A program made the position numbers and the translations under genes. Below are positions 42,291 to 50,464 of a stretch of 64,000 nucleotides of DNA, in pieces (position 1 is the first letter of the stretch; each line of letters opens with the position of its first letter). Below the pieces are notes generated by a model. That model was given only the letters and a program-made list of their open reading frames with translations. It made no database searches and was not told where the DNA came from. The stretch comes from Weissella diestrammenae (GTDB lineage: Bacteria > Bacillota > Bacilli > Lactobacillales > Lactobacillaceae), in the NCBI RefSeq assembly GCF_014397255.1, contig NZ_CP060724.1:1178001-1242000 (forward strand), read 5' to 3'.

Positions 42291-44948
42291 ATGCGTGAAA
42301 TTGATATGCCTGGAAAATATAACGCTGAGGCAGTTGAAGCTGGTCGGTATGATAAGTGGGTGAACGAAAAACGTTTTACGCCTTCTGGCGATGATAAGGC
42401 TCGGCCATATGCGATTGTGATTCCACCGCCTAATGTGACAGGTAAGTTGCACTTGGGACATGCCTGGGATACAACGTTGCAAGATATGATTATTCGTCAA
42501 AAACGGATGCAAGGGTTTGATACTGTATGGGTGCCAGGAATGGACCATGCGGGGATTGCCACGCAAGCAAAAGTGGAGCAACGTTTAGCTGAACAAGGTA
42601 TTTCGCGTTATGACTTAGGGCGTGAAAAGTTTGTGGATCAGGTTTGGGATTGGAAAAACGAATATGCTGCAACAATTAAAGCTCAGTGGGGTAAGTTAGG
42701 CCTTTCTTTAGATTATGATCGGGAACGATTCACGTTGGATGAGGGACTGTCTGATGCTGTCAAAAAGGTCTTTGTGACTCTTTACAATAAACAATTAATT
42801 TATCGTGGTGAGTATATTATTAATTGGGATCCTAAGGCACGAACGGCTTTGTCAGATATTGAAGTGGTATACAAAGATGTACAAGGTGCTTTCTATCATG
42901 TGAAGTATCCATTTACTGACGAAACAACGTTAGATGGTAAAGATTATATTGAAATTGCAACGACCCGTCCTGAAACAATGTTTGGTGATGTAGCGGTAGC
43001 AGTTAATCCTAAAGATGAACGTTATCAATCTATTATTGGGAAAACAGTGAGGGTACCATTAGTTGATCGTGAAATTCCAGTTATCGCTGATGACTATGTT
43101 GAAATGGATTTTGGAACAGGTATGGTTAAAATTACGCCTGCTCATGATCCAAATGATTTTGAAGTCGGCAATCGCCACCAGTTAGAACGAATTAATACGA
43201 TGAATGAAGACGGTACGATGAATGAACGTGCTGGCCGGTATGTGGGGATGGACCGTGATGAGGCCCGAAAGACAATCGCGACTGACTTACAGACAGATGG
43301 TTGGATGCTTAAGGTAGTGCCTTATACGCACTCAGTTGGTCATTCAGAACGGACTGGTGTGCCAGTCGAAGCACGCTTATCAACGCAATGGTTTGTTAAG
43401 ATGAAACCTTTAGCTGAACAAGCGTTGGCTATGCAACAATCTGATGATCGGGTTGATTTCTATCCACCACGTTTTGAAAATACATTTACATCATGGATGG
43501 AAAACATTCATGATTGGGTGATTTCACGACAATTATGGTGGGGACATCAGATTCCAGCGTGGTATCACAAACAAACGGGCGAATTGTATGTTGGTGAGAA
43601 CGCGCCAACTGATATTGAAAATTGGGAACAAGAAACTGATGTGTTAGACACATGGTTCTCATCAGCACTTTGGCCATTTTCAACGATGGGCTGGCCTGAC
43701 ACGGATGCCCCTGATTTTAAACGCTACTTCCCAACAAACACGTTAGTGACTGGCTATGATATTATCTTCTTCTGGGTGGCTCGGATGATGTTCCAATCAA
43801 AAGAATTTACTGGACGTCGACCATTCCAAAATGTGTTGATTCACGGTTTGATTCGTGATGAAGAAGGACGTAAGATGTCGAAATCATTGGGGAATGGGAT
43901 TGATCCAATGGATGTGATTGAGAAGTATGGCGCTGATGCGTTACGTTGGTTCTTGGCTACTGGGTCAACGCCTGGATTGGACGTACGTTTCTCATACACA
44001 AAAATGGATGCTGCGTGGAATTTCATTAATAAAATCTGGAACGCGTCACGCTATGTCATCATGAACTTAGATGAAACAACCGAAGCTATTTTGCCAGCAC
44101 GTGAAGAGATGGCGTTAGCTGATAAGTGGATTTTGACTCGTTTGAATTCAACGGTTGCATCGGTTACGAAGAATTTCGATAAGTTCGAGTTTGGTGAGGC
44201 AGGCCGTGCGTTGTACAACTTTATCTGGAATGATTTTGCTGATTGGTATATTGAAATGACCAAGGAAACGCTAAATGGCTCTGATGAACAAGCAAAGCGC
44301 CGTGTTCAAGCTGTTTTGGCTTATGTATTAGACCAAACATTACGTCTATTGCATCCAATTATGCCATTCGTAACAGAAGCAATCTGGCTTGAAATGCCAC
44401 ATGAAGGTGATTCTCTAACTAGCGCAGCCTATCCAACGGTTCAAGCTGAATTGGATGACTCGACGGCAGAGTCTGATTTCCAGAGCCTTGTGGACTTGAT
44501 TACTGCAGTTCGAACGATACGTACTGAAGCGAATGCACCGATGTCAACTGAGATTGATGTCTTGATTCAGACAAGCGATCAAAACTTAACACGTATTTTT
44601 GAAAGCAACGTTGATTACATCAATCGGTTTGTTAAGCCTAAGCAATTAACAATTGCACCAGAGGTATCCGTACCACGCTTAGCCATGACACAGGTTATTT
44701 CTGGAGCTGAAATTTTTGTGCCGCTTGCTGAATTAATTAATCTCGAGGATGAAATTAATCGCTTACAAGGTGAAGTTAAAAAATTCCAAGGTGAAGTTAA
44801 GCGGGCTGAGGGTAAACTAGGAAATGAAAAATTTGTTCAATCTGCACCAGAGTCGGTTGTTGCCGCCGAGCGTGAGAAGTTGGCTGATTGGCAGACAAAA
44901 TTAGCTGCAACTCAAACACGACTCACTGAATTAAACGCTGCGAAGTAG
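42291..44948 (+). CDS. valS: valyl-tRNA synthetase
   Basis: 885 residues of a class I synthetase: HLGH (54-57, the HIGH motif), KMSKS (528-532), the editing domain between them and a C-terminal coiled-coil arm of about 65 residues ([17 protein letters not shown] onward). ATG 42291 is preferred to 42285 since GAGG ends at 42283. Transcription depends on the T-box just upstream. In other lactobacilli folC usually follows directly; here a bacteriocin cassette intervenes. Confidence 0.97.
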
Positions 44949-44988
44949 ACGCTTAATTTATGTGACAGATTGATCAGTTTTAATAATA

Positions 44989-45025
44989 AAAATGACTGCG
45001 ACATTAATTTGTTGCAGTCATTTTT
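44989..45025. terminator. bidirectional terminator after valS
   Basis: AATGACTGC (44991-44999) pairs with GCAGTCATT (45014-45022) with flanking A and T runs. On the minus strand it is placed to end the bacteriocin transcript. Confidence 0.9.
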
Positions 45026-45062
45026 TGATGTTCTAGTGGTGTATTGATAAGAATAGACAAAT

Positions 45063-45079
45063 ATCGATGAAAAACTGGA
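45063..45079 (+). repeat. left copy of 17-bp direct repeat flanking the bacteriocin cassette
   Basis: ATCGATGAAAAACTGGA, identical to 49046-49062. Similarity extends imperfectly from TGATAA (45045) to TTTAAT (45096), overlapping the stop codon of the bacteriocin gene. Confidence 0.8.
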
Positions 45080-45087
45080 TAGTCTGA

Positions 45088-45240
45088 TTATTTAATATGT
45101 AGAATTTGCTTGATTTTGTTGATAATCCAATCAATAGCTTGGCCAGCATTTAACCATTTGATGATGGTACCAATATTGTTTTTCCCCCAGTTTAATACCG
45201 TTGACCCAGCAGCAGCTAGTGCGTCTAATATTACAGCCAT
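45088..45240 (-). CDS. leaderless class II bacteriocin, lacticin Q/aureocin A53 type
   Basis: A 50-residue peptide with GAGG 9 bases before the ATG. There is no double-glycine leader or signal peptide. The C-terminal half reads WLNAGQAIDW and NKIKQIL, which matches the C-terminal helix of lacticin Q as I remember it almost residue for residue. The N-terminal half is different from lacticin Q and less basic (one lysine in the first 25 residues). It is cationic (5 Lys, 2 Asp, 1 His) with three tryptophans, as in this membrane-permeabilising family. On the opposite strand lies a PH-domain and ABC transporter operon like the lnq immunity/export genes. It is too short for most gene callers. Confidence 0.87.
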   Translation of the reverse strand: MAVILDALAAAGSTVLNWGKNNIGTIIKWLNAGQAIDWIINKIKQILHIK

Positions 45241-45453
45241 ATAAAATTACCTCGTTTTTTTGTTAATCATGATTACTTTATTAGTGTAACTAGTAGTAGT
45301 CGTTTTGTGTGCACTAAAACACTGACAAATGTCATTGAACTGAGACATTGATTTGATTAGGCCTAATACAAAAATGCACAGAATAGGCATAATTTCTTCA
45401 TTGCGGGGGGGGGGGATAATGAACAAATATTAAATTTTTAGGAGATGTTTTAT
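45241..45453. promoter_or_regulatory. divergent control region of the bacteriocin locus with poly-G tract
   Basis: Contains an 11-G run (45405-45415) joined to a -10-like GATAAT (45415-45420) for the rightward operon, and a perfect 12-bp palindrome ATTAGGCCTAAT (45356-45367). It also has TGACA-AA-TGTCA (45323-45334) and a further dyad AATGTC/GACATT (45328-45349). These are candidate operators for the adjacent XRE regulator. No strong -35 is visible for either direction, so the promoter positions are tentative. Confidence 0.55.
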
Positions 45454-45675
45454 ATGCTGGGTAATCAATTAAAGTGCGCACGAATTATGAAAAATTTTAA
45501 GCAAGAACAGGTGGCTGAACGACTAAATCTATCACGACAAAGTCTCTCTAAATGGGAAAATAACCACTCGCTTCCAGATGTTCACACATTGTATGAATTG
45601 TGCAATTTATACGGCCTTTCAATTGAAAAATTTTTAATTGAGAATGCAAATGAGAATACGGGAGGGTTAAGTTGA
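45454..45675 (+). CDS. XRE-family transcriptional regulator
   Basis: 73 residues, essentially one helix-turn-helix: LKCARIMKNFKQEQVAERLNL and SRQSLSKWEN at about 6-36. AGGAG (45440-45444) fits the ATG at 45454; the ATG at 45445 abuts it and is unlikely. It is first gene of the immunity/export operon and its stop overlaps the next start (TTGA). It probably controls the bacteriocin locus through the palindromes upstream; this is inference. Confidence 0.85.
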   Translation: MLGNQLKCARIMKNFKQEQVAERLNLSRQSLSKWENNHSLPDVHTLYELCNLYGLSIEKFLIENANENTGGLS

Positions 45676-46109
45676 TACAATTATCAGTTAATAAACAAGT
45701 CGTTTACTATGAATTGACCCGATGCATATTTTCAATGTTTTCTGGCTTAATTATCATTAGTTGTGTGGCATATTTTTTTAAATCAATTGCCGTACTCCAC
45801 TTTGGTATATTTGGCATTTTCTGTTTAGATGTTGGCAACGGTGTAAAACGATTATTAATGAGACGTGCTTATCGGATGAGAGTTACTGACTCTCAGATTG
45901 GCATTCAACAAGGTATTTGGATACATAAAGAATTAGTCATTTATCGGGATAAAATATTTGCATTAAATTATAAGCAAAGTATGGTTCAAAAATGGTTTGG
46001 GTTGACGATGATTCAAATTAGGACAACGGGGTTAACATATGCGACGCCAGTGGTTAAATCTGATTCAATGTTGATCGAACAGCTGGGGTTAGTATATGCA
46101 AAAAAATAG
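45672..46109 (+). CDS. bacterial PH-domain (bPH2, YdbS-like) membrane protein
   Basis: 145 residues with a TTG start overlapping the regulator stop and GGGAGG upstream. Two membrane helices (about 19-55) precede a bPH2 domain: YRMRVTDSQIGIQQGIWIHKELVIYRDKIFALNYKQS and RTTGLTYATPV are the domain's usual strand pattern. Proteins of this kind occur in pairs (YdbS/YdbT) in leaderless bacteriocin loci such as lnq and auc, where they provide self-immunity and help export. It overlaps the following PH gene by 14 bp. Confidence 0.78.
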   Translation: MIQLSVNKQVVYYELTRCIFSMFSGLIIISCVAYFFKSIAVLHFGIFGIFCLDVGNGVKRLLMRRAYRMRVTDSQIGIQQGIWIHKELVIYRDKIFALNYKQSMVQKWFGLTMIQIRTTGLTYATPVVKSDSMLIEQLGLVYAKK

Positions 46110-47420
46110 TAAATTAATCGTTATTCAAAAATTTGTTGAAATCTTGACAATATACTTACTGAATACCCAATTTATACGCGAGTTACCAATGGGGACATTA
46201 AAAAATGTTTTACATATATCTTGTATGTTATTTATCCTGTATAAATTGTATGAATTAATAAATTACGGCTTTTTTTTAATTACCAGCTTGAAAATAAAAA
46301 AATAATTGTCAAAAAAGGTATTTTTGACAAAAACCATTTGGAAATGAATGTAAAAAACATTATTGGCTTGAACTGTCGACAATTGTGGTATTTTAAACCC
46401 TTTGGCCTTTGGCAAGCGTCGATTCAGACGGCTGGTTTGGGGGAGAATAGTCAGCTGATGTTACCAATGATATCTCAAAGCCAGGTTAATACTTTGACGG
46501 CGTTTATTGAAAAAGATGCATGTTCTATACAGTCAAAGCAAGACAATGCATCAGAATTTCAGGAAATCAAGCCTCTAAAATTGAAAAATTTGGTTAAAGC
46601 GGCATTATTATCACCAAAATACTTATTTTTCTTTGTTTTGGTTGATCGTATCCAGGCCTTGTTAAATGTCGTTGGGATACAGAAATTACCATCTTTTTTC
46701 TTACATAAGTCTGAATTGAATAAGTTGATTGGAGAGCTTGGATTGGTGATCTTGTTTGTGAGCTCAGCTTTGTTGAAGCAATATCTAGATTATCGGAATT
46801 TCAAATTAAAATTCAATGATGAAATGATTGACATTGCAAATGGTGTCCTTGCTACCAACCAAGGACATTTGAATAAAAAAGATGTCTTAGGATTACATAT
46901 TAGTAAAACTGTTAGCGAACATATTTTGAACTTATCGTCAGTCGAGGTGCTTTCAAAACATAACCTGGGAGATGCAAAAACAAAAATCAATGAGGTGTTG
47001 CCATATACATCAGATGAAGGTGTTGCACAGTTATTAAGCCAGATTCTGGGTGGATGGCCTTGTCCTGATTTGGGGGATAAAAATAAAAGAGCCTTGAAAA
47101 TCGTAGGAGGTCTACTAATACTCCTAGGCGTGGTTAGCCTCATTACATTTTTTGATATAAAGCGCAGTCTGATCAATTTGCTTGTTATTTGTCTACTTTT
47201 GATTTTAGTTATTCTTTTGAGTTATTTTCAGAGGGAACTCGAAATTGATGGTGACTATATAAAATATCATTTCGGTATGTTTGTACATTCTGCGTATATT
47301 GTTAAACGAAAACAAATCGAATGGATTAGACAAGTTGAAATTGGCCCTTTTATTTTGACTGAGGTGGCTATCTATTTAGACCATTTAAGACACTTTAGGG
47401 TGATTACACGAAAGAGGTGA
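46096..47420 (+). pseudogene. second PH-domain membrane protein (YdbT-like), frameshifted in a T8 run
   Basis: Frame one (46096-46305) gives two helices ending INYGFF. After the TTTTTTTT at 46270-46277 the other frame reads NYQLENKKIIVKKGIFDKNH and continues through LWYFKPFGLWQASIQTAG, the bPH2 signature, to 47420. One extra T (or two fewer) joins them into about 441 residues with repeated PH domains and further membrane helices, as in YdbT. As written, the protein is split. It is expected to cooperate with the smaller PH protein in immunity. Confidence 0.78.
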
Positions 47421-47423
47421 ACT

Positions 47424-48104
47424 ATGCCAGTACTTATATGGTGTGAGATTAGAAGAGAGTTGTTGACATTTAAGAGCATCATTGTAGTCGCTTTTATTGT
47501 CAGTTTGTCGGTCTTTATTGGTGAGTTTGGGGCGAATGTAAAAGATGCTTTACCAAATGGTGATTCTTCAATCTATACGAGCTTATTTTCATTATTTGCG
47601 TTATTTGGTTTTATATTTTCGATGATGATTTTTTCAGGCATTGTAGCGTCTGAAATTGAATCTGGTACGATTCGATTGATACTACCATATTTCGACCGAA
47701 AGTTGATTTATATTGCACGGTGGCTAGCAATATTTAGTTATTTTATCTTTCTTATCATCACGTCAATTGTTATTGTTTCTTTTTTAAAAATGCAGTTTCT
47801 CATTCCTTGGGGATTGTTTGGCAAAACAGCCTGCTTTTTTGCATATTGTTCTAGTGTCGTGATGTTTGTGTCGAGTTCATTTTCAAAGGTTAAAACTGCA
47901 AATTTTATTGGTGTGCTAATTGGTATTGGGTCATTAATTGTATACATTGCTGATAGAATTGATGGACATAGTTTTTTTCATTTCCTAGATTATTTGATGC
48001 CATACCAATATATAGATAATCCTAACGGCGGATTAATTTTAGTGACTTTGAGTATAATATTCGGGTTACTGGGATGGTTTGTATTGACGAAAAAGGAAGT
48101 TTAG
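47424..48104 (+). CDS. ABC-2 type transporter permease, bacteriocin immunity/export
   Basis: 226 residues with six predicted membrane helices. ASEIESGTIRLILPYFDRKLIYIARW, after the second helix, is the coupling region typical of ABC-2 permeases. It starts 3 bp after the PH gene and is followed directly by its ATPase. In the lacticin Q and aureocin A53 systems such a transporter removes the peptide from the membrane and secretes it. Codon use is AT-rich like the rest of the cassette. Confidence 0.8.
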   Translation: MPVLIWCEIRRELLTFKSIIVVAFIVSLSVFIGEFGANVKDALPNGDSSIYTSLFSLFALFGFIFSMMIFSGIVASEIESGTIRLILPYFDRKLIYIARWLAIFSYFIFLIITSIVIVSFLKMQFLIPWGLFGKTACFFAYCSSVVMFVSSSFSKVKTANFIGVLIGIGSLIVYIADRIDGHSFFHFLDYLMPYQYIDNPNGGLILVTLSIIFGLLGWFVLTKKEV

Positions 48105-48106
48105 TA

Positions 48107-48964
48107 ATGATAGAGGTCAAAGGATTAGATAAAAGTTTTCATGGAAATCAAATTTTAAATGGTATCAATCTTAAGGTTGATAATGGGAGGATTACCGCAT
48201 TAATTGGGAAAAATGGTGCTGGTAAATCAACATTAATTGGCTGTGTTTGTCATTATTTTGAAATTGATGCGGGTAGTATTTTAAATGCAGATGTATCCGT
48301 TATGCCAGATGTCGATAATCTATATCGTGATATGACGGGACGGCAGTTTTTGAAATATATGACACGTATTAAAAGAAAAGGGACTTTTGATTATTTAAGT
48401 ATGGTGAAGAGATTAGGTATTGTTGAGGAATTGGACAACAAGATCAAATCGTATTCATTTGGGATGAAATAGAAAGTGAATTTTATTCAAGCTTGTTTGG
48501 GTGATTATGACACATTTATTTTTGATGAACCGACATCTGGTGTCGATGTAGAATCCGCTGTAATAATGATGAAAATAATAAAAGAAATTAAGTCCCGAGG
48601 CGCAGCAATTTTGTTGACTTCGCATAACATTGAGGAACTACAGGAAGCTAGTGATTATATTTATTTCATTAATCAAGGTGTGATAGAACAAGCGGGTACG
48701 GTCAAAGAGATTTTAAGTTATTCACGTCATGATGCTACGGTTGAATATGTATTAGTACCTCAATCGATTGAGAAAATGGCTGCATATTTAGACGAAAGCG
48801 CAGAAAATGATTACTATATTCACGAAAATGTCATTGTCATGGCTTTCTCAAATATAAATGCGATGAATTGTTTTTTAAAGTCACTGGTATTCAATAACAT
48901 AATTCTGATTGAGATTTATCAATCCAATAAGAAACTGAAAGATGTTCTTTTTGCAGCAGATTAA
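48107..48964 (+). pseudogene. ABC transporter ATPase with internal amber codon
   Basis: The ATG at 48107 has AAGGAAG upstream. Walker A GKNGAGKST is near residues 34-42. At codon 122 (48470-48472) a TAG interrupts the frame right after the signature-motif equivalent SFGMK. The same frame then continues KVNFIQACLGDYDTFIFDEPTSGVD with Walker B, the switch histidine and a normal C-terminus (285 codons in all). CAG or CAA (Gln), the usual residue in GMKQK, would need a single change; C to T in CAG gives exactly this codon. Without read-through the ATPase is inactive. Confidence 0.88.
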
Positions 48965-49045
48965 GTTGATGTTTTTTGTGAGACCAACGAGTATGTCAAT
49001 ATTAGTGCTTGATAGCGTTTTTTAACTGCTGATAATTGAATAGGC

Positions 49046-49062
49046 ATCGATGAAAAACTGGA
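49046..49062 (+). repeat. right copy of 17-bp direct repeat flanking the bacteriocin cassette
   Basis: ATCGATGAAAAACTGGA, identical to 45063-45079; looser similarity runs from TGATAA (49030) to TTTAAT (49079). It lies between the ATPase gene and folC. Confidence 0.8.
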
Positions 49063-49153
49063 AATGCAGTATCTTTAATTCATTTGGTAGTACTTAACGA
49101 ATGTTATCAATTTTGATATGATAAGAAAAACATTTGAATGAAGGTAGCGAATA

Positions 49154-50464
49154 ATGATTGATGATTATCCAGCGGCAATTGCATTAATTCATGGCCGGCA
49201 TAAATGGCAAAAAACAAATACATTTGCGCGGATTGCAGCCCTGCTCGCACAACTGGGTAACCCACAAAAAGGGCTAAAATACATTCATATTACCGGTACC
49301 AATGGTAAAGGTTCGGTTGCCAAAATGACAGCATCAATGCTACAGGCACATGGGTTAAATGTTGGCCTATTTACGTCACCATTTATCATGCGATTTAATG
49401 AGCGAATTCAAATCAATGGCGAGCCAATTCCAGACGCAACACTAACGCGGATTATGCAACGCATTGAACCGATTTTGCAACAAATGGATGCCACCTTTAC
49501 TGATGGTGGCCCAACTGAGTTTGAAACGTTGACGGCAGCTATGTTTGTGTATTTTTCTGAACAGGATGTGGATGTCGTTGTTTTAGAAGTCGGCATTGGT
49601 GGCACTTGGGACACGACGAATATCATTAAGGATAAACTGGTTTCAGTGATTACAACGATTGGCTTAGATCATCAAAAAATTCTTGGGCAAACAATGCCTG
49701 AAATTGCTGAGCAAAAGGCCGGTATTATTCACAAAAATCGACCTACGATTATTGGAAAATTACCAGAAGCAGCTCAAGCTGTGATTCAGCAAGCGGCGGG
49801 CGAACTATTCGTGTTAGGTCAAGATTTCAGCAGTTCAAATGGTCAAATTCAACGTCCTTGGGGACAAAGTTTTGATTTCTCAGATCGGTATGGTGAGATA
49901 GCCGATATTTTTCTTGATTTAATGGGCGATTATCAACAGGATAATGCAGCAGTTGCAATTGAGACTGTTTGGGTCGTGATGCAAGCATTAGGGCGATCAA
50001 TCAATGTCGCGAACATGCGAGAAGCGTTGACAACGGTTCAATGGCCAGCTAGATTTGAGAAAGTTAGTGTGCAGCCATTAATCGTTTTAGATGGTGCACA
50101 TAACCCAGCGGGGATCGCAGCACTTTCGTCAACTTTACAAACGCATTTTAGCAATCGAACGATTTATTTGATGGTCGGGGTATTAGCTGATAAAAATTAT
50201 CCGTTGATGTTGCACGAGTTAGCGCAAATTTCTGGTGTGAAATTAAGTGTTGTTGGTTTTCAGGCACCAAATCAACGAGAATCAATCGATCCACATCAAA
50301 TTCAAATTGATTTTCCAGAGTTAAAAGTAACGACTTTTGATGATTGGCACATTGGCGTGCAAACAATAATCAGTGAGATGGATTTAGCTCAGGATATGAT
50401 TGTTGTTTCAGGTTCGCTATATTTTGTATCGGAGATTCGAACGTGGTTGATGCAAAAAAAGTGA
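49154..50464 (+). CDS. folC: folylpolyglutamate synthase/dihydrofolate synthase
   Basis: 436 residues of the Mur-ligase-like family. The P-loop is GTNGKGSVAK (48-57); LFTSPFI, EVGIGGTWDTTN and DGAHNPAG are further signatures. It adds glutamate to folates. GAAGGTAG precedes the ATG and a TATGATAAG-like -10 lies about 30 bp further up. valS-folC is a common gene order in lactobacilli, so the 4-kb bacteriocin segment looks like an insertion. Folate supply links it functionally with the folT riboswitch gene at 7.2 kb. Confidence 0.93.
   Translation: MIDDYPAAIALIHGRHKWQKTNTFARIAALLAQLGNPQKGLKYIHITGTNGKGSVAKMTASMLQAHGLNVGLFTSPFIMRFNERIQINGEPIPDATLTRIMQRIEPILQQMDATFTDGGPTEFETLTAAMFVYFSEQDVDVVVLEVGIGGTWDTTNIIKDKLVSVITTIGLDHQKILGQTMPEIAEQKAGIIHKNRPTIIGKLPEAAQAVIQQAAGELFVLGQDFSSSNGQIQRPWGQSFDFSDRYGEIADIFLDLMGDYQQDNAAVAIETVWVVMQALGRSINVANMREALTTVQWPARFEKVSVQPLIVLDGAHNPAGIAALSSTLQTHFSNRTIYLMVGVLADKNYPLMLHELAQISGVKLSVVGFQAPNQRESIDPHQIQIDFPELKVTTFDDWHIGVQTIISEMDLAQDMIVVSGSLYFVSEIRTWLMQKK

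What the first reader, a model, noticed from the sequence alone, without database searches (positions are those of the whole stretch)
48470..48472. Amber codon just after the signature motif of the bacteriocin ABC ATPase
The frame reads SFGMK-stop-KVNFIQACLG, where the family has GMKQK. A single C to T change from CAG explains it, so this is not a homopolymer artefact. Walker B and the rest remain intact in frame, suggesting a recent event. Loss of the ATPase should remove immunity/export, raising the question of how the peptide gene is tolerated.
Basis: partly seen in the sequence, partly recalled or inferred. Interest (0 to 1): 0.7.

Follow-up and report, generated by a model that had tools for sequence, protein, structure and literature searches.

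The report
Decaying bacteriocin island with amber-split ATPase
A stop codon does cut in two the ATPase of a small bacteriocin gene island in a lactic acid bacterium, and a second broken gene in the same island, plus similar breaks in relatives, suggest an ordinary cassette that is losing its function rather than a new mechanism.

Summary
Observation confirmed: an in-frame TAG at 48470-48472 splits an ABC ATPase (48107-48964, +) right after its signature motif; Walker B and the C-terminus stay open. The "GMKQK / C-to-T" origin is not supported: 9 of 9 intact relatives carry lysine there.

The ATPase closes a 4-kb AT-rich island between valS and folC, flanked by exact 17-bp direct repeats: an aureocin A53-family leaderless peptide (-), an HTH gene, YdbS-like and YdbT-like PH-domain genes, an ABC-2-fold permease and the ATPase. 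In studied systems (papers, not tested here) both components serve export, so this is most likely a decaying, non-producing cassette. The intact 153-bp peptide gene is about 4% of the coding target, so its survival needs no special explanation.

Breakage recurs: the ATPase is broken at 4 of 14 related loci, while valS is open in 28 of 28 genus genomes. One of four peptide-bearing loci is wholly intact.

Ordinary pseudogenisation in a known kind of system. Side finds: the genome's only G-run of nine or more lies inside the island; M. plutonius plasmids show the same ATPase loss within one species.

The parts
45063..45079 (.). left 17-bp direct repeat bounding the island
   Evidence: Exact copy at 49046-49062; only these two copies in the genome at up to 2 mismatches
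45088..45240 (-). aureocin A53-family leaderless bacteriocin gene, 50 aa, intact
   Evidence: Pfam Bacteriocin_IIi 40.4 bits, cut-off 25; NCBIfam NF033881 55.5 bits, cut-off 27; ribosome-site-like GAGGT upstream
45405..45415 (.). G11 tract in the divergent intergenic region
   Evidence: Only G9+ run on either strand of the genome; extent
45445..45675 (+). Cro/C1-type HTH gene, probable regulator
   Evidence: Pfam HTH_19 58.3 bits, HTH_3 56.1 bits
45672..46109 (+). small membrane PH-domain protein, YdbS/DdE/LnqC-like, open
   Evidence: Pfam bPH_2 36 bits; weak similarity to the equivalent gene of G489 (17% identity, pairwise E 3e-4)
46096..47420 (+). large PH-domain protein, YdbT/DdF/LnqD-like, frameshifted at the T8 run 46270-46277
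   Evidence: bPH_2 profile match starts at 46272 in the frame of 46338-47420, where no start codon lies upstream after the previous stop; 23.6% identity over 394 aa to the intact 450-aa G489 protein from its residue 64 on; the preceding 58 codons are open in another frame from 46096. By similarity alone the N-terminal piece is not above shuffles
47424..48104 (+). ABC-2-like permease, 226 aa, intact
   Evidence: No Pfam hit; AlphaFold2 model pLDDT 79.4, pTM 0.78; best PDB fold matches NosY and ABCG1, best E 1.1e-3, TM by query 0.65-0.77 for the first ten; homologue annotated ABC transporter permease
48107..48964 (+). ABC ATPase split by TAG at 48470-48472 into 121 aa and a 162-aa open frame (possible GTG start at 48476)
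49046..49062 (.). right 17-bp direct repeat bounding the island
   Evidence: G+C 0.33-0.36 over 45000-49000 against 0.38-0.44 in the flanks

Best explanation
An acquired aureocin A53/lacticin Q-type leaderless bacteriocin cassette, inserted between valS and folC, that is decaying in place. In working relatives the PH-domain pair and the ABC-2 permease/ATPase would move the finished, leaderless peptide out of the cell and away from its own membrane. Here the ATPase ends at the signature motif, so it lacks Walker B and cannot hydrolyse ATP, and the YdbT-like PH protein is frameshifted, so both export components are lost. Shown: the stop, the frame break, the peptide's family membership, the island borders, no second permease copy. 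Inferred: loss of export, non-production, little or no peptide expression, recency, horizontal origin. The peptide gene survives because it is small (153 of about 3,690 coding bases; two random hits miss it with probability about 0.92, my arithmetic), not because something protects the cell.
For: In-frame TAG; TAG is an ordinary terminator here, ending 13 of 50 window ORFs of 150 aa or more. Second lesion in the YdbT-like gene. Peptide above both curated cut-offs. Island borders: 17-bp repeats and G+C; folC lies within 1.5 kb of valS in 23 of 27 other genus genomes. Recurrent loss: ATPase broken at 4 of 14 species-level loci (window, M. plutonius, G224, G340) against valS open in 28 of 28, Fisher p 0.009. 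Of four peptide-bearing loci, G224 has TAA and G137 TGA in the peptide, the window has two lesions in export genes, and G489 alone is open throughout. Passages of PMC8657885 report that loss of DdE or DdF traps EntDD14 inside and that lnqCDEF are each needed for lacticin Q production. The probable source species Weissella diestrammenae (size, G+C, its one predicted bacteriocin area being aureocin A53-family) showed no inhibition in a well assay (passages of PMC10100829 and PMC9257631).
Against: The part after the stop looks constrained: 24 of 27 invariant residues are kept and identity to relatives falls no more than between most intact pairs, so restart, leaky read-through or a very recent mutation stay open. 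T8 could be a sequencing error or be rescued by slippage. There are no reads, expression data or phenotype for this genome; the species name is inference. The assay negatives in PMC10100829 also covered strains with other clusters, so they are weak evidence. In EntDD14 the ATPase deletion only reduced export. The 4-of-14 tally is post hoc, uses another gene as control and leaves out four weak permease matches (G116 twice, G141, G197).
Confidence: 0.75

Rival explanations
1. The ATPase is still made as two chains: ribosomes stop at TAG and restart at the GTG at 48476, one codon later, and the halves associate into a weakly active ATPase.
For: Open 162-aa frame from GTG 48476; a GGGA stretch at 48461-48464, 11 bases before it; constrained downstream part.
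Against: 9 of 9 intact relatives are single-chain; the break lies inside the nucleotide-binding core; the partner PH gene is broken too; no unusual RNA structure at the stop (z 0.92).
Confidence: 0.08
2. Sequencing or assembly error at the codon (and perhaps at T8); the cassette is intact in the living strain.
For: Read support unknown; T8 and G11 are error-prone kinds of run; residues downstream of the stop are conserved.
Against: The stop is a substitution outside any long run; two independent errors would be needed within 3.7 kb, while neighbouring valS is open.
Confidence: 0.1
3. Amber read-through by a suppressor tRNA or a leaky context yields some full-length ATPase.
For: Downstream frame intact.
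Against: TAG ends 13 of 50 window ORFs, so general suppression would lengthen many proteins; no structure at the site. The genome's tRNA anticodons were not surveyed.
Confidence: 0.04

Closest known systems
Lacticin Q cluster (lnqQBCDEF) and aureocin A53 cluster (Orf7/Orf8 and ABC genes)
   Same: Leaderless aureocin-family peptide, YdbS/YdbT-like PH-domain pair, ABC export genes (passages of PMC8657885)
   Different: Peptide divergent with an HTH gene; ATPase and YdbT-like gene broken; chromosomal island between valS and folC. No direct sequence comparison with lnq or auc genes was made
Locus on a 5.1-kb contig of unnamed Lactobacillales genome G489 (L109)
   Same: Same gene set: peptide (45% identical), permease, ATPase, both PH genes
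   Different: All genes open, ATPase a single chain; different gene order
Pneumococcal blpAB loss
   Same: Bacteriocin peptides kept while the dedicated ABC exporter is disrupted; intact and broken forms coexist (passages of PMC12150690)
   Different: Frameshift rather than amber; the paralogous exporter ComAB substitutes there, whereas no second permease copy was found here
Staphylococcal Pmt exporter ATPase PmtC
   Same: ATPase profile aligns over positions 3-283 with chain 6xjh_C, E 3.6e-31; NF047568 matches residues 3-282. That 6xjh is a Pmt structure is recalled, not from a call
   Different: 79.8 bits against a PmtC cut-off of 375: not a member

Membership tests
Aureocin A53-family leaderless bacteriocin (peptide) | Score above curated family cut-offs | tested here: met
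   NF033881 55.5 against 27 bits; PF11758 40.4 against 25 bits
Aureocin A53-family leaderless bacteriocin (peptide) | No leader peptide: the ORF begins at the mature N-terminus | tested here: met
   Profile match covers residues 1-47 of 50 from profile position 1
Aureocin A53-family leaderless bacteriocin (peptide) | Secreted and membrane-active against Gram-positive bacteria | not testable with these tools
   No phenotype for this genome; the probable source species gave no inhibition in one assay (PMC10100829 passages)
Working lacticin Q-type production cluster | Intact YdbS-like and YdbT-like PH-domain genes | tested here: not met
   Both bPH_2 genes present, the YdbT-like one frameshifted at T8
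Working lacticin Q-type production cluster | Intact ABC permease and ATPase | tested here: not met
   Permease open and ABC-2-like; ATPase cut by TAG
PmtC (phenol-soluble modulin exporter ATPase) | NCBIfam equivalog cut-off | tested here: not met
   79.8 bits against 375

The most novel reading that the evidence does not exclude
The exporter ATPase of this cassette type is a preferred target of loss while its permease stays open (open in the window, G224, G340 and all four M. plutonius plasmids, seven copies of which six have a broken ATPase), so the permease may have an ATPase-independent use, for example immunity together with the PH proteins; the unique G11 tract and the T8 run may make the island switchable.
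Probability: 0.1. Interest if true: 0.55.

Novelty: new member of a known kind. Interest (0 to 1): 0.28.

Why it matters
It is a natural case of a leaderless, active-on-translation bacteriocin gene kept intact while both parts of its predicted export route are broken, with the same exporter ATPase failing in several relatives. It also warns that genome-mining calls of aureocin-type clusters based on a peptide hit alone may count dead clusters. If the permease-only reading held, it would bear on the open question of how cells survive leaderless bacteriocins.

Tried and rejected
Glutamine ancestor (GMKQK): rejected, lysine in 9 of 9 intact relatives. Amber as a sense codon: rejected, TAG ends 13 of 50 window ORFs. 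Recoding signal at the stop: nothing structured, no Rfam match in 44000-50000. Second cassette in the genome: none (one permease match; two bPH_2 matches, both here). Sigma-70-like promoters: 23 found against 21.4 expected, uninformative. Phage origin: no match. DNA-level plasmid relatives: only M. plutonius ATPase stretches at about 66% and one short Mesomycoplasma match. The named-genome scan with the ATPase profile returned 80 generic ABC loci that were not used further, so other strains of the species could not be compared. Similarity of the YdbT N-terminal piece alone: not above shuffles. Low net charge as a reason for tolerance: dropped, the intact G489 peptide is +2 against +3 here. Permease profile against solved-structure sequences: no match. 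Dropped before the 14-locus count: four weak permease matches, G116 twice, G141 and G197, whose ATPases were not examined.

Full report
What was claimed and what is there. The frame 48107-48964 (+) carries TAG at 48470-48472 directly after SFGMK, as reported. The piece before it matches Pfam ABC_tran (46.9 bits); the frame continues open through Walker B and the H-loop to a TAA ending at 48964. Among 53 PF00005 matches in the 1,659,381-base single-contig genome this is the only one with a stop inside. The stop is a substitution in a non-repetitive place. In 9 of 9 intact homologues the aligned residue is lysine, so the proposed glutamine ancestor and C-to-T change do not hold.

Is it an active recoding site? 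TAG ends 13 of 50 window ORFs of at least 150 aa. The RNA around the stop folds no better than shuffles (z 0.92) and no Rfam family matches 44000-50000. None of the 9 intact homologues has a stop there. A GTG at 48476 could restart translation, so a two-chain product cannot be excluded by sequence.

How old is it? Columns invariant in nine intact homologues are kept in 33 of 34 cases before the stop and 24 of 27 after it. Identity to homologues is 45-53% before and 32-43% after, much the same gradient as between most intact pairs compared (for example G489 with G026, 55 and 37). So the downstream part has not visibly decayed.

The cassette. From 45063 to 49062 lies an island with G+C 0.33-0.36 against 0.38-0.44 outside, bounded by exact 17-bp direct repeats that occur nowhere else in the genome at up to two mismatches. 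It sits between valS and folC, which lie within 1.5 kb of each other in 23 of 27 other genus genomes. In two of the four others folC lies about 4 to 5 kb away (G022, G016) and in two it was not found in the 10-kb stretch taken (G021, G020), so the site seems to take inserts repeatedly. Genes: a 50-aa aureocin A53-family peptide on the minus strand (NF033881 55.5 bits, cut-off 27), then on the plus strand an HTH gene, two bPH_2 genes, a permease without Pfam match but with an ABC-2-like predicted fold (NosY and ABCG1 as nearest solved structures; best E 1.1e-3, none at or below 0.001), and the ATPase.

A second lesion. The bPH_2 profile match of the larger PH gene begins at 46272, but in that frame no ATG, GTG or TTG lies upstream after the previous stop; the first is at 46338, inside the domain. 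The intact equivalent in G489 (450 aa) aligns from its residue 64 on (23.6% over 394 aa). The preceding 58 codons are open in another frame from an ATG at 46096 that overlaps the smaller PH gene, and the frames meet at the T8 run 46270-46277. The N-terminal piece is not similar to G489 above shuffles, so its membership rests on position, length and hydrophobicity.

What the parts do elsewhere (passages read, not whole papers). PMC8657885: DdE and DdF, YdbS/YdbT-like PH proteins, are needed to export EntDD14, which otherwise accumulates and harms the cell; deletion of any of lnqCDEF abolishes lacticin Q production; deleting the EntDD14 ATPase cut export by about 75% and that transporter is not known to give immunity. 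PMC6249370: lactolisterin BU needs its ABC genes and has a separate immunity gene. PMC11580447: PH-domain and ABC genes commonly accompany aureocin-type peptides. So loss of the ATPase plus the YdbT-like protein predicts no production, and trapped peptide would be harmful if made; the simplest reconciliation is little or no expression. This is inference.

Relatives. Permease searches matched 4 of 28 genus genomes, 10 of 397 family genomes, 6 of 395 order genomes with a profile, and 2 of 26 and 2 of 15 genomes in two further genera; these sets overlap and include this genome. I examined the ATPase at 14 species-level loci: window, M. plutonius, G026, G027, G015, G224, G137, G340, G617, G488, G513 (two), G489, G554; four weak permease matches were not examined. 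Broken: window (TAG), G224 and G340 (frameshifts; the G224 one falls at an A9 run), and M. plutonius (S1, DAT1033 and DAT585 frameshifted, DAT585 with a second lesion). Intact M. plutonius DAT561 has the H-loop His where S1 and DAT585 have Asn; DAT1033 is identical to S1 in this gene. The M. plutonius permease is open in 4 of 4 plasmids; on DAT561 the YdbT-like gene is a 102-aa remnant (48% over 96 aa to G489), and no aureocin-type peptide was found on the two plasmids searched, DAT561 and S1. valS, as a control for assembly quality, is open in 28 of 28 genus genomes; 4 of 14 against 0 of 28 gives p 0.009, post hoc and with a different gene.

Peptide-bearing loci. PF11758 rings in 2 of 397 family genomes and, among 13 handles, clearly in G224 and G489 and weakly in G137. 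G224 has TAA and G137 TGA inside the peptide; G489 is open throughout. With the window, one of four is wholly intact.

Source organism. Size, G+C and a genus of 28 held species in a family that fits Lactobacillaceae suggest Weissella. W. diestrammenae DSM 27940 has a 1,639,510-bp draft with G+C 39.22% (PMC9257631 passages) and a single predicted bacteriocin area, of the aureocin A53 family, with no inhibition of E. coli, B. megaterium or L. monocytogenes (PMC10100829 passages). The window's G+C is 39.9%. This naming is inference (about 0.7). If right, the cluster itself was already listed in that paper; in the passages I read its lesions are not mentioned.

Verdict. A true nonsense mutation in an otherwise ordinary, probably acquired and probably dead leaderless-bacteriocin cassette. 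Searches for prior reports: (open-access library only; listings seen). Interest is modest; the recurrent ATPase loss and the G11 tract are the parts worth a follow-up.

Noticed in passing
window 45405-45415: G11 run between the divergent peptide and HTH genes; the only run of nine or more G on either strand of the 1.66-Mb genome. Possible slippage-prone promoter spacer or assembly-sensitive site.
   Followed up: partly
window 46270-46277: T8 run where the YdbT-like PH-domain gene changes frame; true frameshift, slippage site or sequencing error.
   Followed up: partly
window 45063-45079 and 49046-49062: Exact 17-bp direct repeats bounding the AT-rich island between valS and folC, unique in the genome.
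   Followed up: yes
L152 and L154 (G022, G016): The valS-folC interval is 4 to 5 kb in further species of the genus, an apparent insertion hotspot.
   Followed up: partly
L012, L013, L159, L160: Melissococcus plutonius plasmids: homologous ATPase intact in DAT561, frameshifted in S1, DAT1033 and DAT585, permease open in all four; YdbT-like remnant beside it in DAT561.
   Followed up: yes
L017 6704-6853 and L018 5513-5629: Aureocin-like peptide genes of G224 and G137 carry in-frame stops (TAA, TGA) next to the same permease/ATPase pair.
   Followed up: partly
window 44988-45025: 16-bp inverted repeat with a 6-base loop just after valS, perhaps its terminator.
   Followed up: no
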